A stretch of DNA of 63,835 nucleotides, taken from IMG/VR virus record IMGVR_UViG_3300024432_000013, positions 1-63,835 of that record. The stretch is one strand, 5' to 3'. Shown here piece after piece: positions 11,962 to 62,854 of the stretch. A program made the position numbers and the translations under genes. The notes under the pieces were generated by a model that saw only the letters and a list, made by a program, of their open reading frames with translations, had not been told where the DNA came from and made no database searches. Every line of letters starts with the position of its first letter. Within the stretch, counting starts at the first letter, position 1. The stretch is from a virus.

Positions 11962-12750
11962 TTGGAGGGATTTTTAGATGACAAAGAATTTTTTAAAGCA
12001 CTGGCTGTAAAGGTCTGTTATGAGGCAGCGGCACGGGACTTGACAGGTTCTAGAAAAAAGTTTAATGTAGACGAGCTTTCACATAAGGGCAGAGTTAATT
12101 TAGACCATTTCAAGGAAATTTCCAGGAAACTTCAGGTAATGGAAGTAACTGTCGAAGACTTTATCGGAGTGATGTTCAATCACTATAAATGGCCACGAAA
12201 AATGGCAGGCAGACTCTTCAATTACCCCTATCTCTCGTTCCTCGCATCAGACGGAGCAATGTCAATGTTCAGGCGGGGATATAGGGAGCTTAAATCATCA
12301 TACGGACATATAAAAATGTTTAGACGAGTAATTCGGTCAGGCGAGGGCGGGAGCCTTGAAATAAAATTCGGCGGCTGTTTCTATACGGGGTTTGACTATT
12401 TGTATTCGGCAGTAGAACAGTTCGGATTCGCATACTTTGAACGCCCGATAAATCTGCTCTCTTTCTTCTTTGCAAATAACGAGATGTTCTCACCCGAGTT
12501 CATCTGTTTGCATAAATCGTTTCGGAAAATGCTAAAACAACAGGAAAGCTTGCTCGGCGTAGAAAGGAAATTAGCTCATGTAATATGTGAGTATGTATCG
12601 GCAGTAAGACGCAGGGCACGCACCGATAACCATTATCATAGACGGCTCGGTCGAGCATATCGAGCCGTAAGAGAGAAAGAAGGAGGAGACATCGAAAAGC
12701 AAAGGAAGAATCTCAGGAACTGGAAGCGCGTATGGCTCCTTCTGAGATAA
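11962..12750 (+). CDS. hypothetical protein upstream of DnaB (262 aa)
   Basis: TTG at 11962 follows AAGGAG at six-base spacing; an earlier TTG (11947) precedes that site. The protein is helical with an acidic start and a strongly basic C-terminal quarter. Its 3' end overlaps the DnaB start by 19 bases. Position and length would suit a helicase loader or accessory factor, but no loader motif or ATP site is visible, so this is only contextual. Confidence 0.6.
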   Translation: MEGFLDDKEFFKALAVKVCYEAAARDLTGSRKKFNVDELSHKGRVNLDHFKEISRKLQVMEVTVEDFIGVMFNHYKWPRKMAGRLFNYPYLSFLASDGAMSMFRRGYRELKSSYGHIKMFRRVIRSGEGGSLEIKFGGCFYTGFDYLYSAVEQFGFAYFERPINLLSFFFANNEMFSPEFICLHKSFRKMLKQQESLLGVERKLAHVICEYVSAVRRRARTDNHYHRRLGRAYRAVREKEGGDIEKQRKNLRNWKRVWLLLR

Positions 12751-15125
12751 GTACGTTAGAGACCAGTGTTCTCCCGTCAGCAATGCAGCTTGAGGTCTTG
12801 TCATTCCTTGTCCGTGATAGGGAAACGATGGTTCGGTTCATAGAGTCGATAACCGAGAGAAACTTTGAGAACCCGGTGCACAGGGTAATCTATAACATCG
12901 CACGCAGGTATTTCCTCGCCTATCTACGACCGCCACCACGCAGGATATTAGAACGTGAGTTAGATCGTTGGATTCATGCCAATGAAGACTCGCAGGTAGT
13001 AGGACCCGATTATTTCTGGACCGAAGTAGACAGGCTCTATAACATTCCACTTACAGAACGGCAGTACCTGTTAGATAAAGTAACCGATTTCCTGGTCAGG
13101 TATGAATGCGGAAAGTTGGGAGAGCAGGCAATCCAGGCAGTAAGGGTCGATACGTTCAATGCCGATAGTGTTATGCGGGCTATAACAGCGTTCATATCAG
13201 TGCAGTCGGGACAGATGAAATCGAGGATGGAGTATCTGTTAAAAGACGCAGAAACCCGGGTGCGGGAAGAACCAACGGCTCATAGAATTAGTACGGGGTT
13301 GCGTACCTTGGATAAAGTGTTGGGCGGAGGTCTCGACGTCGGGGAACTTGGCATAGTCTTGGGGCCGACAGGCATGGGAAAATCACACTTGTTAATAACC
13401 TTTGGGTCACATGGAATGCAGCAACGTCATAGGGTTCTGCACGTAACACTTGAGCTATCGAAAGAGAAAGTACTGGGCAGGTATGAAGCGTTCCACACCC
13501 GTATTCCAAAAGCAGAGCTCTTTGATAAGATGGATGATGTTGTCAGGCATCTAACACGGATGAGAAGCTTGGTTCAGCCTGCAGATGTGCTTGTTATAGA
13601 GTACCCGACTCGCGGTTTGACAGTAGACGAATTCCGAGCAGCAGTATCGCAGGCCGCAGTAGGACAGTCGTTCATACCCGACTTAATAATACTCGATTAT
13701 GCAGACATACTCAGACCGTCAAAGGAAGAACGGAGCGAGAAGCGGTATGAAGTACTCATGGCTATGTATGAACGTCTCAGAGGCTTGGCACAGGAATTCC
13801 ATGTTCCGATATGGACGGGATGTTTGCGAGGAAACGTTGAGGTCGCTCTTCCCGAGGGAAATGTTCCGATAGGAGAGTTAGAGGGAAAACGGGATTTTTG
13901 GATATGGGCGTGGGATATACCAATGAATAAACCGAAGGTGGCAAAGGCGAGTAAGTGTGTAAAAACAGGCACAAATGTATCGTTAGTGCGAGTGGGCTTT
14001 GATGACGGAAGTCATGTTGAGTGTACGGAAGATCATAAGTTTTTACTTCGAGATGGATATAAAGAAGCTCGTCATCTTCAGGAGGGAGATTCTTGTCGAA
14101 TTATTGTTCGAGATGAGTATAAGCATCGGCGTTCGATATATAACAGACTGCGAATAAAAAGAAAGTGGATATCAGAACATCGGTTTGTGTGGGAGCAGAT
14201 TCATGGTAGAAAAGTAAGAAAGACCGAGGCTATTCATCATAAGGATTTTAATCCCAAGAATAATCATCCAGAAAACTTGGTTTGTATGTTGGGAAAGCGT
14301 CATCAACGGTTTCATAAGGAGTTAGCAGATGGTTTGTTTAATGCAGGACGGAGCGAGAGAAATAAGAAGATGTTAAGCGAATTGAGAAGGGTGGATAATC
14401 CCATGTGGAAATCGGGAGTCAAGGAGAAAATGATAAGGAGTAAATTAAAGTTTTATGAGGGTTTGACAAAAGAGCAGAGGCAAAGGATGTGTTCGAATAG
14501 GACGACCCTTAGGAAGGGAGGATCAAATCCGTATGATTTAGTAGTGGTGAGAGAGAAGACGAGCAAAACAGTTAAGAATCAGTGGGCGAGTATGACCGCA
14601 GAGGAGAAATCAAAGAAGTTGAGAGGTGTGAGAGGTTGTTGGGGGAGGGTTCGAAAGAGAGATCGCAGCACAGGCAGGTTTGTTTCTCAGAATCATAAGG
14701 TTCTCTATGTTCGGAGAATAGGACGAGGAAATGTGTATGATATTGAAGTTCCAGAGACTTCAAATTTTATTTTGGGAAATAGAGTGGTAGTTCACAACAG
14801 TCAAGCCCGTCGTACCGCGCTGGGGAAGAAAGTAATAACAATAGCAGACATAGGAGAGTCGTTTGGTAAAGCACAGGTGGCCGACGTTGTACTTTGCATT
14901 TGCAAAACGAAGACAGAAGAAGAAATGAATTGTGGCCGTTTTTACGTGGGCAAGAACAGGGATAATCCGGGTCACATCGTAATTCCGTTCCGGCAGGATT
15001 TAGATTATAGCAGATTTTCTGAGCCGGCGGACGCTCATGCCCAGGAGATGGCGCCGTCAGAGGTTGAGTACGATGTGGCCCGGTATGAACAAAAACCCGA
15101 TGACGACGAGCAAGTGCCATTTTGA
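12732..15125 (+). CDS. dnaB: replicative DNA helicase DnaB, interrupted by an intein
   Basis: Hexameric 5'-3' helicase that opens the phage replication fork. The N-terminal domain (residues 1-150) matches DnaB-N. The RecA-like motor has Walker A GPTGMGKS near residue 213, the THEL-like VTLELSKEKV, and Walker B LIILDYADI. The motor is split after VPIWTG by a 326-residue in-frame intein (C364 to N689). The host protein resumes with SQARRTALGKK and an ADIGESFGKAQVADVV motif, giving 471 residues after splicing, a normal DnaB size. The C-terminus ends acidic (DDDEQVPF). Co-translated with the upstream 262-residue protein. Confidence 0.9.
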   Translation: MAPSEISTLETSVLPSAMQLEVLSFLVRDRETMVRFIESITERNFENPVHRVIYNIARRYFLAYLRPPPRRILERELDRWIHANEDSQVVGPDYFWTEVDRLYNIPLTERQYLLDKVTDFLVRYECGKLGEQAIQAVRVDTFNADSVMRAITAFISVQSGQMKSRMEYLLKDAETRVREEPTAHRISTGLRTLDKVLGGGLDVGELGIVLGPTGMGKSHLLITFGSHGMQQRHRVLHVTLELSKEKVLGRYEAFHTRIPKAELFDKMDDVVRHLTRMRSLVQPADVLVIEYPTRGLTVDEFRAAVSQAAVGQSFIPDLIILDYADILRPSKEERSEKRYEVLMAMYERLRGLAQEFHVPIWTGCLRGNVEVALPEGNVPIGELEGKRDFWIWAWDIPMNKPKVAKASKCVKTGTNVSLVRVGFDDGSHVECTEDHKFLLRDGYKEARHLQEGDSCRIIVRDEYKHRRSIYNRLRIKRKWISEHRFVWEQIHGRKVRKTEAIHHKDFNPKNNHPENLVCMLGKRHQRFHKELADGLFNAGRSERNKKMLSELRRVDNPMWKSGVKEKMIRSKLKFYEGLTKEQRQRMCSNRTTLRKGGSNPYDLVVVREKTSKTVKNQWASMTAEEKSKKLRGVRGCWGRVRKRDRSTGRFVSQNHKVLYVRRIGRGNVYDIEVPETSNFILGNRVVVHNSQARRTALGKKVITIADIGESFGKAQVADVVLCICKTKTEEEMNCGRFYVGKNRDNPGHIVIPFRQDLDYSRFSEPADAHAQEMAPSEVEYDVARYEQKPDDDEQVPF
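13821..14798 (+). mobile_element. HNH homing-endonuclease intein within DnaB
   Basis: Splicing block A starts at Cys364 (CLRGNVEVALPEG). Block B contains CTEDHKFLL, with the His expected of the TxxH motif. The C-terminal blocks are VYDIEVPETSNFILGN and VVVHN, followed by Ser as +1 residue. The middle third holds an HNH-type endonuclease core (AIHHKDFNPKNNHPENLVCM then KRHQRFHKE), so the element could home into intein-less alleles. Boundaries come from the first Cys and the terminal HN|S junction and restore an uninterrupted DnaB. Confidence 0.9.
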
Positions 15126-15808: not shown

Positions 15809-16258
15809 ATGACAGTTACAAAGTTTAAAATGAAGAATTATACAACAGAGGTCACTCCCGAGCGGAGTATTGCAGAGATAGAAAAAATGTTAGCACTCTT
15901 CGGCGCAACAGCAATTATGAAGGAGTTCACGCCAGATGGCAGAGTCTTTGACCTAGCATTCAAAATTCAGGATAAGGCATTCAAACTTCCAGCCCATGTT
16001 GATGGGGTGAAGAAGGTGTTGTTCGAAGGCTCACGCCCACCAACGTCAAAGGATATTGAAAGGCGACGGGAGGATAGAGCTAATAGAGTGGCGTGGAGGA
16101 TTATAAAAGATTGGATTCATGCTCAGCTAAGTCTCATAGCATCAGGGCAGGCACATCCACATGAAGTCTTCCTTCCGTATATGTTTGATGGGAAGAAGAC
16201 GCTCTATCAGACGTATACAGACGGACTGCTTTTAGGTCCGAAGGTGAAAAATGAGTAG
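15809..16258 (+). CDS. conserved phage hypothetical protein (149 aa)
   Basis: N-terminal part with ERSIAEIEKMLALFGATAIM and a beta stretch FDLAFKIQDKAFKLP, then a helix WRIIKDWIHAQLSLI and EVFLPYMF. This pattern recurs in phage proteins near replication genes, but the role is unknown. Overlaps the following gene by eight bases. Confidence 0.65.
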   Translation: MTVTKFKMKNYTTEVTPERSIAEIEKMLALFGATAIMKEFTPDGRVFDLAFKIQDKAFKLPAHVDGVKKVLFEGSRPPTSKDIERRREDRANRVAWRIIKDWIHAQLSLIASGQAHPHEVFLPYMFDGKKTLYQTYTDGLLLGPKVKNE

Positions 16259-23737: not shown

Positions 23738-23780
23738 ATATAGTGTTTACGGTGCGGTATGGTAGGACGAGGTGTGGTTT

Positions 23781-25181
23781 GTGAGCGAGATGAAAGTTAG
23801 AAAGATTTGTGAGCAGTGTGGAAAGGAATTTGAGGCTTTCCCATATAAGATTAAGGTGGGCAAGGGAAAGTTTTGCTCAAAAAAATGTTCTGATTTAGCT
23901 CAAACTGGTCCGGTTATCGAATTAAGGTGTTTGAATTGTAAGAAGGAGTTTGAGGTTAGTTCTTATAATAGCCAACGTAAGTTTTGTTCGAGGAGGTGTA
24001 TGGGTCAGTATAAGAGAGGAGAAAAACATCCGAATTGGATTGGTGGGGAAATAGAGGTTTTGTGTAGCAATTGTGGTAAGGGAGTCAAGAGGTATGCGAG
24101 GCAAGTAGCAAAAAGGAAATGGAATTTTTGTAGTCGTGCTTGTCAGAAGGAGTATTTTAGTAGGAGGGGATTGAGCATATCGGGTTGCGGTCCAGCAAAA
24201 TGGGGGAAGGTCGAGAAAGAATGTATTCAGTGTGGCCGAGAATTTCAGGTGCGTTCGTCTGAAAGCTTCCGTAAGTTTTGTTCGCGGGAATGTTATTTTT
24301 CGTGGCGTCGTACAAGTGAAGGGCGAAGGATGATTCGTTCAAGATGGAAAAGTCCGGAGTACAAGGAGAATTGGAAGAGGAAGGTGGCATTGGTCAGGGA
24401 CAAAATGAGTAGAAAACAGTCGAAGACAATGAAATTGGTGTGGGGAAGGCCGGGATATAGGGTAGCTACGGTTGAGAAAATGAAGCGGGCATGTGCGAAC
24501 CCACAAACAAAGCTGAGAAGGGCCGAGGCCATTAAGGGGAATTGGCAAGATTCCAATTATTTGTTCAGTTATTATAAGGGTCAGATTTTTGGGCGGGGGT
24601 TTGATGACGCTTTATTGATGGAGTTGGACAGGGAATTGATTCAGGCGAAGGTTCAATTGCATGGTATTTGTCAGGGAATTAAGGAATTGGTTTGCAAGTA
24701 CTGTGGGAGGGAGTTTGAGGTTTCCGGTGATGATCAGGTAGTAAGAAAAGAGTATTGTTCCAGGGAGTGTGCGAATTTGAGCAGGAGGTTGCCAGGGGTT
24801 GTTTTAAGGTGTCTGGGTTGTGGGAAAGAGTTTGAGACTACAATGAGTCTTGCTGTTCGGTATCATCGTAGATTTTGCTCTCGGAAGTGTTCTGCTCAGT
24901 TTTTGCGGGGAGAAAATCATTCGAACTGGAAGGGGGGAATGGCAGTAGTTGCTTGTGCATATTGTGGGAGGCAGTTGAAACGATATCCTCAACGGTTAAA
25001 GCAGACGGAGAGGAGTTTTTGTAATGCAAAGTGCCGATCGGCGTATTTCTTGGAAAGGGGATTGCATATTAGTGGCGAACCCAGGATCACAGGCAACCCA
25101 GGGTTAGATAGGGAAATAATTCGGGCGCAAGTCCGATTATTTAAATCCAATAAAAAGGAGGTCAGTCATGAATCAAGCTAG
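23781..25181 (+). CDS. seven-zinc-finger, homing-endonuclease-like protein
   Basis: About 466 residues with seven CxxC...(F/Y)C(S/N)xxC units, for example CEQCGKEF...FCSKKC, CLNCKKEF...FCSRRC and CAYCGRQL...FCNAKC. Four units lie in the N-terminal half and three in the C-terminal half. The halves are partly duplicated: NWIGGEIEVLCSNCGKGVKR with RGLSISG matches NWKGGMAVVACAYCGRQLKR with RGLHISG, and LDRELIQAKVQL matches LDREIIRAQVRL. The central basic region resembles modular DNA-binding segments (NUMOD type) of homing endonucleases. No nuclease active site is obvious. GTG 23781 forms a GTGA overlap with a 16-codon leader frame (23734-23784); GTG 23772 and ATG 23790 are alternatives. Confidence 0.6.
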   Translation: MSEMKVRKICEQCGKEFEAFPYKIKVGKGKFCSKKCSDLAQTGPVIELRCLNCKKEFEVSSYNSQRKFCSRRCMGQYKRGEKHPNWIGGEIEVLCSNCGKGVKRYARQVAKRKWNFCSRACQKEYFSRRGLSISGCGPAKWGKVEKECIQCGREFQVRSSESFRKFCSRECYFSWRRTSEGRRMIRSRWKSPEYKENWKRKVALVRDKMSRKQSKTMKLVWGRPGYRVATVEKMKRACANPQTKLRRAEAIKGNWQDSNYLFSYYKGQIFGRGFDDALLMELDRELIQAKVQLHGICQGIKELVCKYCGREFEVSGDDQVVRKEYCSRECANLSRRLPGVVLRCLGCGKEFETTMSLAVRYHRRFCSRKCSAQFLRGENHSNWKGGMAVVACAYCGRQLKRYPQRLKQTERSFCNAKCRSAYFLERGLHISGEPRITGNPGLDREIIRAQVRLFKSNKKEVSHESS

Positions 25182-25591: not shown

Positions 25592-26392
25592 ATGGAAACT
25601 AATGGTTTTAGTACGTTGGCAAATGCCCTCTATTTTATCCAGAAGGCGAGGGTAGCGTCTCAGGTGAGAAAGACGCATCTTGCACTGAGGAAAGAAACTT
25701 GCAGTGTTACCGAAGAAGTGTTAGAGAGGACAGCAGATGTAGAAACGTGGCTTAACAACAAGGTAAAGGAATTAGTTAAATCGCACCCCGCTTATCCCTG
25801 GTTCAAGAACGTAAAGGGTATAGGCGATCTGAATATCGGCAAGGTCGTTAGCCTTATCGATATTGAGAAAGCGAGTTTAGTAAGTAAACTGTGGAGGTAC
25901 GCGGGAATGGCACCGGGCCCCGATGGCAAAGCAGAACGACAGGTCTCAGGACAGAAGCTCCATTATAATAAGGTTCTTAAGTCTATGTGCTGGCGGGTAG
26001 CCAAGAGCTTAATCAGGGCAAAAGGTTCGTATTATGAGTACTATCGCGAGCAGAAAACAAAGATACTGGCCCGGTTGAAGCGAGAGGGTTATACAGTCGT
26101 CCCATCGTTAGAGTTACCAATAGAAAAGGATCCGAAAACGGGCAGGAAGAAGCACGTTGAGAAAGATGGGTTTTTCGGGCTGGGTCACGCGGACGGCATG
26201 GCTCAACGCAAGATGATAAAGCTTTTTCTCTCCCACTTATGGTTAGAATGGAGAACGGCGGAAAAGCTTCCCATTTCAAAACCATACGCCCATGCTATTC
26301 AAGGTCATTCCGATTATCGACCGCCAGAGGATTTTATTGAGATAAAGGAGGTAACCAAAGCCAAAACCGATGAGAAATCCACATCTCCCTAG
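25592..26392 (+). CDS. Tas-like (Nop/IS110 C-terminal domain) protein
   Basis: The 266-residue protein has an N-terminal helical/coiled-coil part (residues 1-70) and then VKGIGDLNIGKVVSLIDIEK, SKLWRYAGMAPG, SGQKLHYNKVLKSMCWRVAK and a GSYYEYYREQK helix. This is the pattern annotated as the IS116/IS110/IS902 transposase C-terminal domain, which is related to the Nop domain that binds box C/D-like RNA. The DEDD/RuvC N-terminal catalytic domain of true IS110 recombinases is absent, and the usual Ser of their G-x-(I/L)-S-K-x-G motif appears to be Lys. It is therefore unlikely to transpose. With the 36-bp two-repeat array beginning inside its last codons, it best fits a nuclease-less Tas (TasA-like) protein of a TIGR-Tas system. 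Start chosen for AGGAGGTGA spacing. Confidence 0.72.
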   Translation: METNGFSTLANALYFIQKARVASQVRKTHLALRKETCSVTEEVLERTADVETWLNNKVKELVKSHPAYPWFKNVKGIGDLNIGKVVSLIDIEKASLVSKLWRYAGMAPGPDGKAERQVSGQKLHYNKVLKSMCWRVAKSLIRAKGSYYEYYREQKTKILARLKREGYTVVPSLELPIEKDPKTGRKKHVEKDGFFGLGHADGMAQRKMIKLFLSHLWLEWRTAEKLPISKPYAHAIQGHSDYRPPEDFIEIKEVTKAKTDEKSTSP

Positions 26393-27409
26393 CGAGCTGT
26401 TATCATTGAGTAATCCAGAGTATTTGAGCGAGCCAGATTATGAGAGAAATCCACATGCAATGAGCGAGCTATTAATATCGAGAAATCCACGATTTCTGAG
26501 CGAGCTATGTATTGTAAGAAATCCCTAACATATGAGCGAGCCGATGATATGGAGAAATCTGAGATACAAAAGCGAGCCACAATGCAATGAGAATTCCATT
26601 ATTCGAAAAGCGAGCTAACAAGAATGAGAAGCCCACGGCATACGAGCGAGCCTGCGAGTGGAAGAAACCCATTTGGCTTAAGCGAGCTACTCTTAAAGAG
26701 AAACCCAGGTCAATCAAGCGAGCTAACATAATTAAGGAATCCAGAAATTATAAGCGAGCTTTCGATAGCAAGAAATCCTCGGTTAAAGAGCGAGCTACCT
26801 TTAAAGAGAATTCCATTGTTTATGAGCGAGCTATTGACATGGAGAAACCCTTGTAGCAAGAGCGAGCTATCGCATGAGAGAAGTCCAAATAACCGAAGCG
26901 AGCTATTTGAAAGAAGAAATCCGATAAAGAGGAGCGAGCCTCAATAGTTGAGAAATCCAACTGAGTAAAACGAGCCAATCAATGTGAGAATTCCAATGTC
27001 AACGAGCGAGCCAGCATTGAAGAGAAATCCACGCAGAACGAGCGAGCTAATCTAGGTGAGAAACCCAATAAGAAAGAGCGAGCTAGTCAACTTGAGGAAT
27101 CCAAAGATTTCAAGCGAGCTGTAGGTCATAAGTAATCCATTATGGTAAAGCGAGCCTTTGATAATTAGAAATCCGAGAAATCTAAGCGAGCTAACCGCGG
27201 GGAGAAATCCAATTTCCTTGAGCGAGCTAATTGATATGAGAAATTCATTCATGGGGAGCGAGCCAAGACCGAAGAGGAATCCAGTCCTTCAGAGCGAGCT
27301 AATTGAGCGGAGAAACCCACATTAGTAGAGCGAGCTACCATTTTTGAGAAACCCATTGAATTGAAGCGAGCCAAAATGAATGAGAAACCCGTTGAGATTA
27401 AGCGTATTA
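26372..27409 (+). repeat. TIGR-like array: two alternating 10-bp repeats with 8-bp variable segments
   Basis: Period 36 bp throughout, except one 38-bp unit near 26572. Each unit is repeat R1 (consensus RAGCGAGCYA), 8 variable bases, repeat R2 (consensus RAGAAAYCCA), 8 variable bases. I count 28 good R1 copies (core GCGAGC from 26392 to 27366; one has ACGAGC) plus one decayed terminal copy at 27400, and 29 R2 copies, the first at 26372-26381 within the Tas-like coding end. The roughly 57 variable 8-mers show no similarity to one another. Several stop codons interrupt every frame, so it is noncoding. CRISPR arrays have a single repeat and long spacers, so this is not CRISPR. The 36-bp dual-repeat, dual-spacer layout matches TIGR arrays, whose transcripts are cut into about 36-nt guide RNAs. 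Confidence 0.85.
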
Positions 27410-56940: not shown

Positions 56941-57915
56941 GTGCTGGTGATTTACAACGGTAACGGTCTGCAGGTGTTTTATAATGAGAACAGAGAACCC
57001 ATTGAGGTTCCGCCACATTTTATTGTAGATATCCAGCCGTCACCGCCATCAATTCCAAATGTTCATCGTATTGATAAGATAACGCCCTATTTAAAACCAA
57101 ATTTAACGTATGTAATTGTTCGAAGCTATGCTTTGGGGGATATCCTTATGCTCATTCCTGTTATGCGGGAGTTCAAGGATAAATACTCGGGGTCAAAGGT
57201 AGTATTAGTCACAAGTGGGCGTTTCATGACGAGCATTATTCTAAGAGAGCTATCAGGAGATGTCTTTAATGCCATTTCCTACAGGATTTACACAAACCCC
57301 AAGCACTATGATGTGGGGATTATACTCAATGACATTTTAGAACGGGACCATCAAGACCCAAAATACTCAGTAAAGCACAGGGTTGACATCTATCGGGAAT
57401 TTCTTGGACTTAAATCGGGGGAGTTGCCCGTGTGGAACGAGGAAGAAATTTCACCGGGTAAGCATGGTGTGGTCTTCTGTTCTGCGGGCAATACACGTAA
57501 GAAAGCTTTGGAAGATGAAACAGCATCATACATTGAGAAAAAACTGGTTTCACGGTTTAACAAGGTTTGTCATATCAATCATAATCAACATATTCCAGAG
57601 CAAGAGTTATTGGATAAGATTAGGCAGGCACGAGCAGTTATAACTATGGACACGGCGCCGCTTTGGATTGCACATTTCTATCGTACCCCCGTTGTTTTCC
57701 TGTCAGGTCCGACCCGTGGGAAGGAACGGCTGTGTTATCATCCGCTCTTCCCCGACGGGGTATCTGAAGTGTCAATGAGTGAAATGGTGGGATGCACTCC
57801 ATGTTTTGAAAAGGCTGATACCTGTCATATGAATATCGACTGCATGAGAGTGCCGAAGGCAAAGGTTTGGGAAGCAGTAAATTCAGCATTGGAGAAAGTA
57901 ATGTGGAAAAGTTAG
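56941..57915 (+). CDS. GT9 (heptosyltransferase-like) glycosyltransferase
   Basis: Starts with the shared motif (YNGNGLQVFYNENREPIEVP), then a GT9 fold: VRSYALGDILMLIPVMREF (nucleotide-sugar entry loop), VVFCSAGNTRKKALE, and ITMDTAPLWIAHFYRTPVVF with LSGPT. The last motif matches the D-T-x-x-x-H-x-A signature of ADP-heptose transferases. It probably transfers a sugar to phage or host glycans. GTG 56941 is used; GTG 56947 is possible. Confidence 0.78.
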   Translation: MLVIYNGNGLQVFYNENREPIEVPPHFIVDIQPSPPSIPNVHRIDKITPYLKPNLTYVIVRSYALGDILMLIPVMREFKDKYSGSKVVLVTSGRFMTSIILRELSGDVFNAISYRIYTNPKHYDVGIILNDILERDHQDPKYSVKHRVDIYREFLGLKSGELPVWNEEEISPGKHGVVFCSAGNTRKKALEDETASYIEKKLVSRFNKVCHINHNQHIPEQELLDKIRQARAVITMDTAPLWIAHFYRTPVVFLSGPTRGKERLCYHPLFPDGVSEVSMSEMVGCTPCFEKADTCHMNIDCMRVPKAKVWEAVNSALEKVMWKS

Positions 57916-60716
57916 GAACGGAATTGGGAGCAAAAGGTACAGGTTTTTATCGGTCGTATAAGCGGTTATTATATGCAAATACGAGCAAAGCTCCACAGGT
58001 TTACTATGACTCTAATCGCGATCCGATAACAGTCATGCCCGGTGAGACAAAGTTCAAGGACACCGTGGAGAAGATGGATATTCCAGCTTACTTTGTCAGC
58101 CCCGAATTATGGAATGCCCAGAAGGACGCAGAAGCGATGCTTGATAGGAAAGGCAAAGTTACTGTTCTGCTTGAACGGACAGTGGGGAATAGAGGAGATC
58201 ATGTACTTGCGACAGCAATTCCAAAGGCATATAAGGATGTTTTAGGTGATCGAGCTATAGTTGATATTCGGATTCCAAGGTTATATCTGCCGTTTTGGAA
58301 GTTCAATCCATACGTTCGTGACATCTATATTATCGAAGAGGGGAAAACACCAAAGGGTTATGATGTCCTGCTTAACACAGATAATGTCAAGTTGAAGTGC
58401 GAACCGAAGGATTGGGAAAAGAAACGGCATAGAAAGAACAGGACGGCAATTTATTTAGCACAGCTAGGCTTATATCCAATAGATAAACGCCCGGTATACA
58501 TCGTGTCTTCAGCCGAGCGAAAATGGGCAAAAAAGTTTGTTGGAAAGCTGCGTCGCCCGTTAGTCGGAATTCAGACGAGAGCATCCGTTCGGTCAAAGAC
58601 ATATCCATTCATGGCTGACGTGGCTATGGAACTTAGCACACGGGATTATGGTGTGATTATTCTTGATGAAACGGGGGAAAAAGATTTTACTTTTAAATAT
58701 ACGATTAGAGAACTGGCAGCGTTAATAGAACAGTGTGATATTGTCGTCACTAATGATTCGCTTCACTCACACTTGGCAGGAGCACTGGACAAAAAGATTA
58801 TTGGCATTTACGGCCCGACAGATGGTCACATTTTCTGTGAGGATTATGAGAAGGCATCGGTTATTCAGGCACCATGCACAGTTAAATTAAAGAAGCAACC
58901 CTGCTGGCATAAACTCGACTGCATTCCAGGCAGGTCAACAAAAGAAAAAGAAGATGGTGGGTATTCGAAGTGTTTAGAGGCACTCGATCCAAGTACTGTG
59001 TTAGCGGAGATTGAACGGGTGAAGACAGATACACGGCGTGTACTGCTCGTAATGTTAACTTTCAATCTCTTATCTTTTACGAAGAAGGCAATAGCATCAA
59101 TTCGGTGTTGGCATGACTATGATCTGTTTGTTGTGGATAATGTGTCAACGGACGGCACTCAGGAATGGTTGAAAGAGAAGGGCATTAAGTTTGTGTCCAA
59201 GCAGTCGAGTGTCGCAAGCGCTCAGAATATCGGTATTGATGAGTGTTTGAAGGGCAATTACAAGTATATGATTTTGTTAAATAATGACCTCGTTCTTCGC
59301 TATGATACATTGGATGTCTTGATTAACGTAGCAGATAAGACTGGGTGTTTTGGATGTATGTCTAGTCCCATTAAAAATGTTCCTCCTTGGGCAGTTGATG
59401 AAGGCGTATCAGATGCGGATTGGGAGACGAAGGAAATTGTAGATATTCCTGCGGGTTCGTATTCAGCAACGCTCTTGTCAAGGGAGTGTCTTGAAAAAGT
59501 GGGTAAGTTTGATGAGAGCTTCACCCCAAGATACATCGAGGATAATGATTACACACTTCGAATTCGACTTGCTGGTCAGAAGTTTCTACATTCAAGTCAG
59601 GCTTTGTTTTATCATGCTCTCGGCGCCGTCGAATCAATGAATGTGGAGGCGAAGAGAACCAAGGATGTCACCTGGGCACGGAATATTAAGCGGTATAAGG
59701 AGAAGTGGGGATTTCTTCCTCACGAAGAGCAGAGGCTTGGAAATTTGGGCATTGAATGGCAGACTCGGGTGAAAGGGATGACCGTTATCGAAGAGATAAA
59801 TCAGATAATCGAGAGGGAGAAGAAGTGTCGTGTAATTGTCAGGCGCGCAATGGGCGGCTATGGCGACATCATTTTCATAACAGTTGTGGCAAGGGCGTTA
59901 AAGAAGCAGTTCGGACAGGCAGTCACAGTTATTTACGTAGTGCCAACTGAGTTCGTGACCCTTCTTCAATCTTATCCATATATTGATGAGGTGAGTGATA
60001 GTATTTCGAGACAAGTTGGCGACTATTCAATAGATTTGACAGATTTAGAATTCAGGGTAGAGCTTCAGGAGATGCAAAATTTTGGGCATATTCAGCGGCC
60101 GAGGACGCAGATTTATCTCGATATGTTGGGTGTCAAGGATGGACTAAAGCCAGATTATTTTGTCCTTCCGCATGAAGCACAGTGGGCGAGAGATATGTGG
60201 AAGACTCTGCCGAAGGGTCAGAAAGTTTGTATTACTCAGACCGCAAGCAACAAGCTGAAGACATGGCCATATATGAAAGAGTTAGTTAGGGCATTGAAGG
60301 ATGAGAGTCTATCTATTATTGTGCTTGATGAGAAAAAGAAGTTAATGTCTGGGGCTTATCCTTATTCATTCCGGCATGCTTCGGCACTCATTTCCGAGTG
60401 TGATTTTGTTATCGCCCCCGACACAGGTATATCAAACGTAGCAGGGGCTTTGGACAAGCCGGTCTTAACAATATTCAGTAATCGTGATGGCAGGGTATTT
60501 ATTAAGATGTTTCCTTCGATGATTCCGATTCAGGGTCATTGTCAAACATTGGAGGAAGATTTTTGTGATTTTTCGACATTGTGTTTTGGCGATGCTCCTC
60601 ATCGGGAGAAGGAGAATATTGATTATGCAGATTGTTTAAAGAGGTTATCAGTTGAAGAAGTGCTTAAAGAAGTGCGAAAATTGTCATTGGTTCTTAGTTC
60701 TTCCAACTTGCCTTGA
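57903..60716 (+). CDS. three-domain glycosyltransferase (GT9-GT2-GT9-like)
   Basis: GTG 57903 follows GGAG. The shared motif (NTSKAPQVYYDSNRDPITVM then PGET) occupies residues 20-45. Domain 1 (about 90-370) is GT9-like: RTVGNRGDHVLATAIPKAYK, VGIQTRASVRSKTYP, IVVTNDSLHSHLAGALDKKI, IYGPTDG. Domain 2 (390-640) is GT2: VLLVMLTFNLLSFTKKAI, VVDNVSTDGTQEWL, ILLNNDLVL, then YIEDNDYTLRIRLAG. Domain 3 (650-930) is again GT9-like: VRRAMGGYGDIIFITVVARA, VCITQTASNKLKTWP, VIAPDTGISNVAGALDKPVL. At 937 residues it could build a three-step glycan. Confidence 0.82.
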   Translation: MEKLGTELGAKGTGFYRSYKRLLYANTSKAPQVYYDSNRDPITVMPGETKFKDTVEKMDIPAYFVSPELWNAQKDAEAMLDRKGKVTVLLERTVGNRGDHVLATAIPKAYKDVLGDRAIVDIRIPRLYLPFWKFNPYVRDIYIIEEGKTPKGYDVLLNTDNVKLKCEPKDWEKKRHRKNRTAIYLAQLGLYPIDKRPVYIVSSAERKWAKKFVGKLRRPLVGIQTRASVRSKTYPFMADVAMELSTRDYGVIILDETGEKDFTFKYTIRELAALIEQCDIVVTNDSLHSHLAGALDKKIIGIYGPTDGHIFCEDYEKASVIQAPCTVKLKKQPCWHKLDCIPGRSTKEKEDGGYSKCLEALDPSTVLAEIERVKTDTRRVLLVMLTFNLLSFTKKAIASIRCWHDYDLFVVDNVSTDGTQEWLKEKGIKFVSKQSSVASAQNIGIDECLKGNYKYMILLNNDLVLRYDTLDVLINVADKTGCFGCMSSPIKNVPPWAVDEGVSDADWETKEIVDIPAGSYSATLLSRECLEKVGKFDESFTPRYIEDNDYTLRIRLAGQKFLHSSQALFYHALGAVESMNVEAKRTKDVTWARNIKRYKEKWGFLPHEEQRLGNLGIEWQTRVKGMTVIEEINQIIEREKKCRVIVRRAMGGYGDIIFITVVARALKKQFGQAVTVIYVVPTEFVTLLQSYPYIDEVSDSISRQVGDYSIDLTDLEFRVELQEMQNFGHIQRPRTQIYLDMLGVKDGLKPDYFVLPHEAQWARDMWKTLPKGQKVCITQTASNKLKTWPYMKELVRALKDESLSIIVLDEKKKLMSGAYPYSFRHASALISECDFVIAPDTGISNVAGALDKPVLTIFSNRDGRVFIKMFPSMIPIQGHCQTLEEDFCDFSTLCFGDAPHREKENIDYADCLKRLSVEEVLKEVRKLSLVLSSSNLP

Positions 60717-60849
60717 AAAGATGCGAGCTGAGTTCGGCGAGTGGTATTGTACGAACCATAAGGTGAGACGGAAGAAGGTAAGACCAACAATGTCGGCGTG
60801 CCGACATTGGAAGCGGGAGAGGAAAACATTATGGCCGAAGACGAGTTGA
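60652..60849 (+). CDS. small Cys-rich protein overlapping the glycosyltransferase end (65 aa)
   Basis: TTG 60652 with GAGG upstream. Eight Cys/His positions (KKCLKKCENCHWF, PTCLEKM, WYCTNHK, SACRHW) fit a zinc-binding protein, and the pattern resembles the window's other Cys-cluster proteins (aromatic-basic end KRERKTLW). The first 65 bases overlap the preceding gene in another frame. Confidence 0.45.
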   Translation: MKKCLKKCENCHWFLVLPTCLEKMRAEFGEWYCTNHKVRRKKVRPTMSACRHWKRERKTLWPKTS

Positions 60850-61649
60850 AGAGAATCTGGGAGTTCCCGGTTCACTTCATTCTTGGGTTCAACCGGAGTG
60901 GCACAACATTGCTCCTCTCCCTTCTTCGAGGACACGAAGAAATCGAAACCGGGTTTGAGGAGCCTGATCATCTTTATCGCTTGATCGCTAAGACAGCACG
61001 TTACGAAAGGCATTATGAGGAGACGCTTAAAATTCCAAAAGCGGAAATCAAAGCTTTGTATGATAGATCAACCGCTTTCTTTATTAAGCATTTCTATCGT
61101 GAATTGGCAGGGAGATTTGGCAAGAAAATGGCTGTACTGAAGCATCCATCTCTGTCTCCTTATTATCACCGTCTTGCCGAAATGTTTCCCGATGCCAAGT
61201 TCATTATCTTGCTTCGCCATCCTTACGATTTAACAGCTTCAGTTCTTCATCACATAGATAATGATCCGTGGGATCAGGCTAAGCACATTTTCCCGGGTGA
61301 GATACCTCAACTGTGTGATATGATAAAACGGTATCATCGGAAGGAACTGCTTCAAGCACTCCCTGACGGTAGATCGGTGAAGGTGAAATTCGAGGAGTTT
61401 TTGCTTCGGCCAATGGACACTCTTGGTCTTATCCTCGCACATTTCAAAGCTACTGCATCTTTAACTGCCATTAACCATATTCTTTTCCGGGCGGCAAAAG
61501 GCAAGCTTCCAGCTATGGGCCGGAAGATTACGAGTACGAAAATTGTGACACCTGTTAACAGGTTTTCCGCACTTGAGGAGGAGAAGAGGGTGGTGATCAA
61601 GGCAGAGATGAGTGGGTTTTGCAAGGAATTGGGGTACAAGACGAAATGA
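60831..61649 (+). CDS. sulfotransferase-like protein
   Basis: FPVHFILGFNRSGTTLLLSL (residues about 15-34) is the PAPS 5'-phosphosulfate loop, and FIILLRHPYDLTASVL the 3'-phosphate motif. The 273-residue length fits the family. With glycosyltransferases on both sides it probably sulfates a glycan. Start 60831 is preferred over an earlier frame start at 60798. Confidence 0.78.
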   Translation: MAEDELKRIWEFPVHFILGFNRSGTTLLLSLLRGHEEIETGFEEPDHLYRLIAKTARYERHYEETLKIPKAEIKALYDRSTAFFIKHFYRELAGRFGKKMAVLKHPSLSPYYHRLAEMFPDAKFIILLRHPYDLTASVLHHIDNDPWDQAKHIFPGEIPQLCDMIKRYHRKELLQALPDGRSVKVKFEEFLLRPMDTLGLILAHFKATASLTAINHILFRAAKGKLPAMGRKITSTKIVTPVNRFSALEEEKRVVIKAEMSGFCKELGYKTK

Positions 61650-62854
61650 ATTACATAGTTATCATGACGGATGGGATGAGGGCAGACTTTGCTCTCGACC
61701 CATTATTAATGCCCAATGTCTATAAATTTCTTAATCAGTTTGGGGGAATGGAGTTCACGAATGCCTATACTACGACGACGTGGACGCTTGCTGCTTTAAT
61801 GTCTCTTTACACAGGGAGATTGCCATCAAATAATGGTGTTGATGACATTACTTATTCAACACCCGAGCAGGCGATGAAAAAGGACCCGAGGTACTGGAGG
61901 GCAAGCAAGTGTCAGGATGCTGATTTTCTTCCTTGGAGACTTAAAATGTCTGGCTATCGCACCGTGCTTTTCTCAGTTGACCAAGTATCCAAATCGTTAG
62001 CTAATACTGCAAACCATCATTTTGCCAGGTATGTTCGTTGGGACTTCCGATATTTTCAGCCGTCAAAGTTTTTGAAAGAGCCTCACCCGTCACCCTTTTT
62101 CTATCATATTTACGATCATGATGGAGGGCACGATCCTTTTGGCAGGTATCCCCGTACAACGCTCAGCTCATGGATGAGGTGGAAGGAAACCCATCAGCCC
62201 ATCACTTACCTTCATTTGTGGAGGAACCGAGCAGAATGGAGTAAGGAGAGACTTTATGAATGTTGCTGTGAGCAGGTGAAGCAGTATGACGAGAAACTGG
62301 GGACGTTCCTTAACTGGTTGGTAGCAGTAAAGCTTCATGAGAACACGACAGTTATCCTTACGAGCGATCATGGGACCTGTTTGTGGGATCATAATTGGGT
62401 CGGACACGTACAGAATGTCTACGAGGAGATTGTGCGGGTGCCTCTGGTAGTTTGCACTCCTGAAGTGAAGGGCCTTCACACTGTTACTGATATTGTATCC
62501 ATCGTGGACATTGCTCCAACGATATTGGGGCAGGACAGGTTTGGCGATGGTGTTAATCTTTTTAACCGGCAGAAGGACAGAGCTGTGTTTTTTGAATTTA
62601 CCAGGGTGAAGGATCCAGCTGGTAACAAGGCGAAAGCCCTTGCCGATCCCCGGTATCCGAGGACGAGATGCGTGCGGGGAGTCAGGCATCAGAATTTCAA
62701 GTTCATTTTTAAGAAGACAATCAAAGACGAGGCAACGACGGAGCTTTACGATCTGTCTAACACCCATGTGGAGGATGATAGATCCCGTCTTCATAATAAG
62801 GTTTACGAAACAAAGTATCTAGCCATGCTAAAGGAAACATTTGGAGAGTTCTAA
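61646..62854 (+). CDS. alkaline-phosphatase-superfamily enzyme (sulfatase-like, Thr nucleophile)
   Basis: NYIVIMTDGMRADF gives the first metal Asp; TTWTLAALMSLYTGRLP aligns with the sulfatase C-x-P-S-R...L-x-T-G-x-x-P motif but has Thr at the Cys/Ser position; ILTSDHGTCLWDHNWVGH and VPLVVCTPE complete the sulfatase layout. Without a formylglycine precursor it is more likely a phosphodiesterase or phospho(glycerol/ethanolamine) transferase than a true sulfatase. ATG overlaps the sulfotransferase stop. Confidence 0.75.
   Translation: MNYIVIMTDGMRADFALDPLLMPNVYKFLNQFGGMEFTNAYTTTTWTLAALMSLYTGRLPSNNGVDDITYSTPEQAMKKDPRYWRASKCQDADFLPWRLKMSGYRTVLFSVDQVSKSLANTANHHFARYVRWDFRYFQPSKFLKEPHPSPFFYHIYDHDGGHDPFGRYPRTTLSSWMRWKETHQPITYLHLWRNRAEWSKERLYECCCEQVKQYDEKLGTFLNWLVAVKLHENTTVILTSDHGTCLWDHNWVGHVQNVYEEIVRVPLVVCTPEVKGLHTVTDIVSIVDIAPTILGQDRFGDGVNLFNRQKDRAVFFEFTRVKDPAGNKAKALADPRYPRTRCVRGVRHQNFKFIFKKTIKDEATTELYDLSNTHVEDDRSRLHNKVYETKYLAMLKETFGEF

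What the first reader, a model, noticed from the sequence alone, without database searches (positions are those of the whole stretch)
25592..26392. Tas-like protein lacks any nuclease and recombinase catalytic centre
Only the Nop/Transposase_20-like part is present. The DEDD/RuvC domain is missing and the Ser motif of IS110 recombinases appears altered (SGQKLHYNK region). A nuclease-less effector in a phage might silence transcription, mark targets, or recruit a partner nuclease; an HNH gene (34258), a PD-(D/E)XK gene (29507) and the zinc-finger protein (23781) are nearby candidates.
Basis: partly seen in the sequence, partly recalled or inferred. Interest (0 to 1): 0.75.

Follow-up and report, generated by a model that had tools for sequence, protein, structure and literature searches.

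The report
Nuclease-less TIGR-TasA guide system in phage
This phage carries TasA, a published kind of RNA-guided DNA-binding protein that has no cutting domain, next to an array of 29 guides; what seems new is that a few of those guides recur almost unchanged in otherwise unrelated phages, which hints at a shared but still unidentified target.

Summary
The protein at 25592-26392 is a lone Nop-type RNA-binding protein with no N-terminal nuclease or DEDD domain. It belongs to a known class: TasA of the TIGR-Tas systems (Faure et al. 2025, PMC12045711). It scores 185 bits against the curated NCBIfam TIGR-Tas model (cut-off 100), and its model superposes on TasR and TasH only after their nuclease domains. 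A dual-repeat TIGR array of 29 units (36 nt each, one of 38) follows directly; its first unit lies inside the tasA coding end and the stop codon lies in a repeat.

The partner-nuclease idea is not supported: the named PD-(D/E)XK, HNH and zinc-finger genes have no BLAST match in the stretches held around seven other tasA genes.

Not found in the passages I read of that paper: several guides recur at 15-18 of 18 bases in phages whose tasA genes are saturated at fourfold sites (17 same-orientation pairs, 1.0 expected). No target was found in the phage, its relatives, 147 Cloacimonadota genomes or IMG/VR scans; codon tests were negative.

Most likely it is an RNA-guided, non-cutting DNA binder that blocks a shared, still unknown target. 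New member of a known kind.

The parts
25592..26392 (+). tasA: Nop-only Tas protein, 266 aa, no nuclease domain
   Evidence: NCBIfam NF052498.1 185 bits vs cut-off 100; PDB profile hits TasR and TasH only; model Z 17.9 to TasR 109-321
26357..27404 (+). TIGR dual-repeat array, 29 units of 36 nt (one of 38), edge RAGCGAGCY and loop GAGAAAYCC with 9-nt spacers; ends in a truncated edge AAGCG
   Evidence: repeat search and unit parsing
26357..26389 (+). first array unit with truncated edge, inside the tasA coding end
   Evidence: sequence; unit parsing
26390..26398 (+). edge repeat TAGCGAGCT whose first three bases are the tasA stop codon
   Evidence: the stop is near the first unit in 39 of 57 Tas loci that have a downstream array
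26427..26461 (+). guide unit of shared family F1 (also in L002 and L003)
26717..26751 (+). guide unit of shared family F6, identical in L002
26825..26859 (+). guide unit of shared family F9 (also in L002)
26969..27003 (+). guide unit of shared family F3 (also in L019)
26499..26533 (+). guide unit whose two spacers resemble a L002 unit with A and B exchanged (14 of 18)
   Evidence: swapped pairs as a class are only 4 vs 1.1 expected

Best explanation
The locus is a TIGR-TasA system. The array is most likely transcribed as the 3' part of the tasA message and cut into tigRNAs of about 36 nt. A TasA dimer binds one tigRNA and uses its two spacers to open a DNA site of about 18 bp, bending it without cutting, and so blocks transcription or replication of the target. 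At least part of the guide set is aimed at something that several unrelated phages have in common, either a competing element or a host gene. Shown here: family membership, lack of a nuclease domain, array anatomy, overlap of array and tasA, recurrence of guides across unrelated phages. Inferred: processing, DNA binding and bending (from published TasR, TasH and TasA work), blocking, and the nature of the target.
For: Curated TIGR-Tas model 185 bits vs 100. Sequence and fold matches to TasR and TasH without their nuclease parts. 29-unit dual-repeat array directly after tasA. Stop codon in or near the first unit in 8 of 8 loci first compared and in 39 of 57 loci with a downstream array. Guides shared between arrays: 17 same-orientation pairs at <=3/18 vs 1.0 expected, at most 4 in 200 shuffles, while tasA fourfold sites agree only at 9/53 to 19/53 between window, L002 and L019. 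The window phage and the L002 phage share little else. Published: TasA binds 36-nt tigRNAs; TasR and TasH target dsDNA with both spacers (PMC12045711).
Against: No target found in any search. Codon-level tests of shared guides were negative. No expression, binding or repression data for this protein. Shared guides could also reflect exchange of units between arrays. No terminator-like hairpin after the array.
Confidence: 0.6

Rival explanations
1. The RNP marks or bends DNA for a partner enzyme (an integrase, nuclease or replication protein) instead of blocking by itself.
For: TasR bends its target by nearly 180 degrees, and PMC12045711 suggests help to integrases or ParB-like partners. A PD-(D/E)XK, an HNH and a ParB-like gene lie within 10 kb.
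Against: The PD-(D/E)XK, HNH and zinc-finger genes have no match in the stretches held around seven other tasA genes.
Confidence: 0.2
2. It acts on the phage's own genome, regulating phage genes or replication.
For: It sits between the DNA polymerase gene and the SSB, UvsX and SbcCD genes.
Against: Own-genome matches in the published geometry do not exceed control geometries.
Confidence: 0.07
3. It is a box C/D-like guide protein that acts on RNA.
For: Nop fold shared with Nop5 (1nt2, Z 7.1); recurring guides would also fit a conserved RNA.
Against: TasR had no activity on RNA substrates (PMC12045711).
Confidence: 0.06
4. It is a decayed IS110 transposase, no longer part of any guided system.
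For: Sub-threshold Transposase_20 match; PHROG family named transposase.
Against: Intact conserved Nop protein in many phages, each with a matching array; curated TIGR-Tas model passed.
Confidence: 0.03

Closest known systems
TIGR-TasA (Faure et al. 2025, PMC12045711)
   Same: Solo Nop protein, adjacent dual-repeat array, 36-nt unit, two spacers of about 9 nt per unit, found in phages
   Different: 29 units against the 5 to 15 given as most common; repeats read AG...CYA where TasR arrays have UG...CCA; first unit overlaps the coding end of tasA; no clear terminator
TIGR-TasR (9mty) and TasH (9w04, 21kl and others)
   Same: Nop part: model aligns at Z 17.9 and about 17
   Different: Their N-terminal RuvC or HNH nuclease is absent here
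IS110 family recombinases (IS621, ISCro4)
   Same: C-terminal part has a similar fold, Z about 12
   Different: No DEDD domain; linked to a guide array; no sequence-profile match to their PDB chains at E<=10
Microcystis phage Mvi-JY20 locus (PP438412.1, L014)
   Same: Nop-only protein (34% in the alignment) followed directly by a TIGR array, stop codon in the first edge
   Different: Repeats ATGCGAGCC and ACGAAACCC, about nine units, clear hairpin terminator, known host

Membership tests
TIGR-Tas | Nop-domain protein of the Tas clade | tested here: met
   NF052498.1 185 bits vs cut-off 100; PDB profile hits only TasR and TasH; fold match
TIGR-Tas | Adjacent array of two alternating 8-12-nt repeats with spacers of about 9 nt | tested here: met
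TIGR-Tas | Matching box D and box C motifs in edge and loop repeats | tested here: inconclusive
   Both repeats read AG...C(Y/C)A (column counts); covariation across loci was not counted
TIGR-Tas | Array starts with a truncated edge and ends with a truncated edge and terminator | tested here: inconclusive
   Truncated edges at both ends by eye; no terminator-like site after the array
TIGR-Tas | Array processed into 36-nt tigRNAs bound by Tas | not testable with these tools
   needs RNA sequencing
TIGR-Tas | Guide-directed dsDNA binding with spacers A and B on opposite strands | not testable with these tools
   no target found
TasA subtype | No nuclease domain fused to the Nop part | tested here: met
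IS110 family | N-terminal DEDD RuvC-like domain | tested here: not met
   model covers only residues from 126 on of IS621; no room upstream
IS110 family | Catalytic serine in the C-terminal domain (recalled, no call) | tested here: inconclusive
   The suggested S119 is not conserved, but the IS621 serine was not mapped onto the model residue by residue

The most novel reading that the evidence does not exclude
TIGR-TasA arrays in these phages hold a slowly changing core of guides, kept by selection across unrelated phage backbones and saturated tasA divergence, sometimes with the two spacers exchanged. That would make them a standing programme against one shared dsDNA target (a common competitor or a host gene), and not a fast-turnover memory of past invaders.
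Probability: 0.45. Interest if true: 0.7.

Novelty: new member of a known kind. Interest (0 to 1): 0.4.

Why it matters
The natural targets and the role of TasA are stated open questions in the discovery paper. A small set of guides shared by unrelated phages narrows the target search to a few 18-bp sites, and a cultured Microcystis phage with the same kind of locus offers a system with a known host. The nuclease-less state itself is already in print.

Tried and rejected
Target hunts that led nowhere. Own genome. Own and related contigs. IMG/VR exact scans with degenerate shared guides (5, 11, 30 and 36 stretches): two F1 hits (L031, L033) were homologous Stealth_CR2-like genes and one F3 hit lay in a gene that I read as terminase-like from its sequence, but other guides did not hit those contigs above control, and other clusters of homologous hits showed that such clumping arises anyway. 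L022 guides against 147 genomes of the phylum of a Cloacimonadota MAG gave only chance-like matches, while the 18-base positive control was recovered. Three Mvi-JY20 guides against cultured phages: no match. 1015 guides against 1.66 Mb of fetched sequence: no geometry stands out once contigs that were fetched with the same guide are set aside. One 18/18 match of a L149 guide lies in an integrase-like gene of L099, but with both spacers on one strand and a 1-nt gap, which is not the published geometry; I regard it as probable chance.

I first thought that differences between shared guides were synonymous codon changes. Three permutation tests did not support it and I dropped the idea. My first spacer phase (box C base included) may be off by one against the published phase; searches used the other phase. 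Partner genes: no co-occurrence. Plasmid records: no TasA match. PADLOC: no match for TasA. One sigma-70-like site (26378-26406) overlaps the start of the array, but the number of such sites is at chance level.

Limits. Of the 119 stretches of the array scan only 80 were listed and read. Loci L172, L211 and L223 were dropped as repeats of contigs already counted, and L014, L172 and L211. For one search mis-parsed units on a hand-written list of 13 places were removed and one 38-nt unit was added by hand. L002 and L003 are related phages. Many loci are fragments.

Full report
The gene. The ORF 25592-26392 encodes 266 aa. Pfam gives only a sub-threshold Transposase_20 match (E 7.5e-4, 20.3 bits, cut-off 21.3, residues 72-151); PHROGs gives a family called transposase (E 1.3e-35). 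NCBIfam's TIGR-Tas model NF052498.1 matches residues 8-221 at 185 bits, cut-off 100. A profile from seven proteins hits only two distinct sequences in the PDB: TasR (9mty, E 8.2e-39) and TasH (E 8.1e-22). The AlphaFold model (pLDDT 79.1) aligns to TasR 109-321 (Z 17.9), TasH 66-306 (Z 15.8 to 17.2), ISCro4 and IS621 126-322 (Z 11.9 to 12.5) and Nop5 (1nt2, Z 7.1); the rows between IS621 and Nop5 cover only about 60-75 residues of long helices. So the nuclease domain of TasR and TasH and the DEDD part of IS110 are missing. An upstream stop leaves no room for them in frame.

The array. A dual-repeat TIGR array runs from 26357 to 27404: edge RAGCGAGCY, spacer, loop GAGAAAYCC, spacer, 36 nt per unit, 29 units, one of them 38 nt. 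Edge columns that could form the two published base pairs are nearly invariant, and the loop keeps only one of them (column counts, which include three off-register sites; the reading is mine, by analogy with PMC12045711). The first unit has a truncated edge and lies inside the tasA coding sequence; the tasA stop TAG is part of the next edge repeat. In all eight loci first compared, the stop lies in or within 5 nt of the first unit, or in the edge that follows it (for L019, L020, L021 and L022 that table prints the last sense codon, and the stop is the next three bases). In a wider set of 67 Tas loci, 57 have an array near or downstream of the stop; in 39 of these the stop is within -10 to +40 of the first edge, 20 of them at +2 or +3. 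The array therefore looks like the 3' part of the tasA message. Promoter-like and terminator-like sites around it are at chance level. 'Stop codon' does not occur in the main text of the discovery paper.

What is known. Faure et al. (PMC12045711; I read parts 1-5 of 12, and passages) describe TasA as a solo Nop protein and the commonest TIGR effector, show that it binds 36-nt RNAs, show dsDNA targeting by TasR and TasH with spacer A on one strand and B on the other, and suggest blocking of transcription or replication, or help to integrases, for TasA. A review (PMC12385481) was seen only as a search listing. The finding's central point is thus in print.

Relatives. IMG/VR scans gave L002 and L003, L019, L020, L021 and L148, L149, L150. 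GTDB gave L022 on a 3.5-kb contig of a Cloacimonadota MAG. Cultured phages gave Microcystis phage Mvi-JY20 and, more distantly, 75 Mycobacterium phages among 82 records. The window is a T4-like phage (gp20 portal, gp23 capsid, S77 protease). With the L002 phage it shares mainly tasA (64%) and one 149-aa gene (65%), besides short ORFs in the array frame and two short weak matches. L149 shares nothing else with the window, L002, L003 or L019 over its 8.7 kb except array-frame and antisense ORFs. Of 91 held loci (two of them repeats of contigs already counted), 70 have a Tas ORF, 14 of them with 45 aa or more before the Nop part; I did not examine those extensions, some of which may only reflect the choice of start codon.

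Shared guides. Among 159 guides of 11 arrays, 17 same-orientation pairs from different arrays differ at <=3 of 18 bases; shuffling spacer B within arrays gives 1.0 on average and at most 4 in 200 shuffles. Three of the 17 are L002-L003, which are related phages. Families, written A/B: F1 AGAYTATGA/ACRTRCAAT (window, L002, L003); F2 ATGYTCWGG/RACATGTCT (L002, L019, L149); F3 AAYSAATGT/AATGTCAAC (window, L019); F4 with B = ACACGTTAT (L002, L019, L149); F5 RTGATTARG/RAGTAGTWG (L002, L019, L149); F6 AACATAATT/AGAAATTAT (window, L002); F7 AAAATAAAG/TACAACATG and F8 AAACACTRT/ACTAAAYAA (L002, L003); F9 ATTGACATG/WTGTARSAA (window, L002). The last four guides of L002 all have partners in the window: three in the same orientation and one, at 14 of 18, with A and B exchanged. 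Exchanged pairs overall are 4 vs 1.1 expected at <=4/18, so this class is only suggestive. TasR works with exchanged spacers. A pattern scan for this repeat family found 119 stretches, of which 80 were listed. In 1015 guides from 86 arrays there are 81 same-orientation pairs at <=2/16 vs 4.8 expected in 10 shuffles; 27 come from one locus pair, L171-L203, whose kinship I did not test. No guide of the window matched any of the 80 newly listed loci other than those already known (<=3/16). Fourfold sites of tasA agree at 11/56 (window-L002), 9/53 (window-L019) and 19/53 (L002-L019), near the random level, so these guides are kept far beyond neutral descent, or were exchanged or re-acquired. A common target is the simplest reading. 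The passages of the paper that I searched do not mention guides shared between arrays.

No target. Own genome, related contigs, fetched contigs, IMG/VR exact scans and 147 genomes of one phylum gave nothing above control geometries. Tests for synonymous change between shared guides were negative. The host is unknown.

Partner idea. The PD-(D/E)XK gene (PDDEXK_15, E 1.4e-13), the endonuclease VII-like HNH gene (phrog_1035, E 8.3e-10) and the FCS zinc-finger gene are real, but have no match in the stretches held around seven other tasA genes.

Verdict. A sound observation of a known class: new member of a known kind. The part worth following is the recurring guide set.

Noticed in passing
L014 (PP438412.1, Microcystis phage Mvi-JY20), 5842-6930: Unannotated TIGR-TasA locus in a cultured cyanophage, with about nine array units and a hairpin terminator; its tasA is recorded only as hypothetical protein.
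   Followed up: partly
L077 (MG944221.1, Mycobacterium phage Scowl), 3613-3953: Four or five stem-loops lie just upstream of the distant Tas-like gene 70, as in published stem-loop TIGR arrays; the next gene is a Cas4-type exonuclease.
   Followed up: partly
L188, L227, L218, L198, L162, L169, L196: A second cluster of arrays that share guides with each other but not with the window.
   Followed up: no
   Followed up: no
L099, 3846-3864: A L149 guide matches 18 of 18 in an integrase-like gene, but with both spacers on one strand and a 1-nt gap; probably chance.
   Followed up: partly
15809-16258: 149-aa gene of unknown function, 65% identical in the L002 phage and about 34% in L020, two other tasA phages.
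   Followed up: partly
12732-15125: DnaB-like helicase that carries an intein with an HNH domain.
   Followed up: no
57867-62854: Glycosyltransferase gene (families 9 and 2 in one ORF) and a sulfatase gene in a T4-like phage.
   Followed up: no
23772-25181: Protein with at least five FCS-type zinc fingers; PHROG hits named HNH endonuclease match only parts of those profiles.
   Followed up: partly
25592-26392: The NCBIfam model NF052498.1 calls its members RNA-guided endonuclease although this one has no nuclease domain, so annotation by that name will mislead.
   Followed up: no
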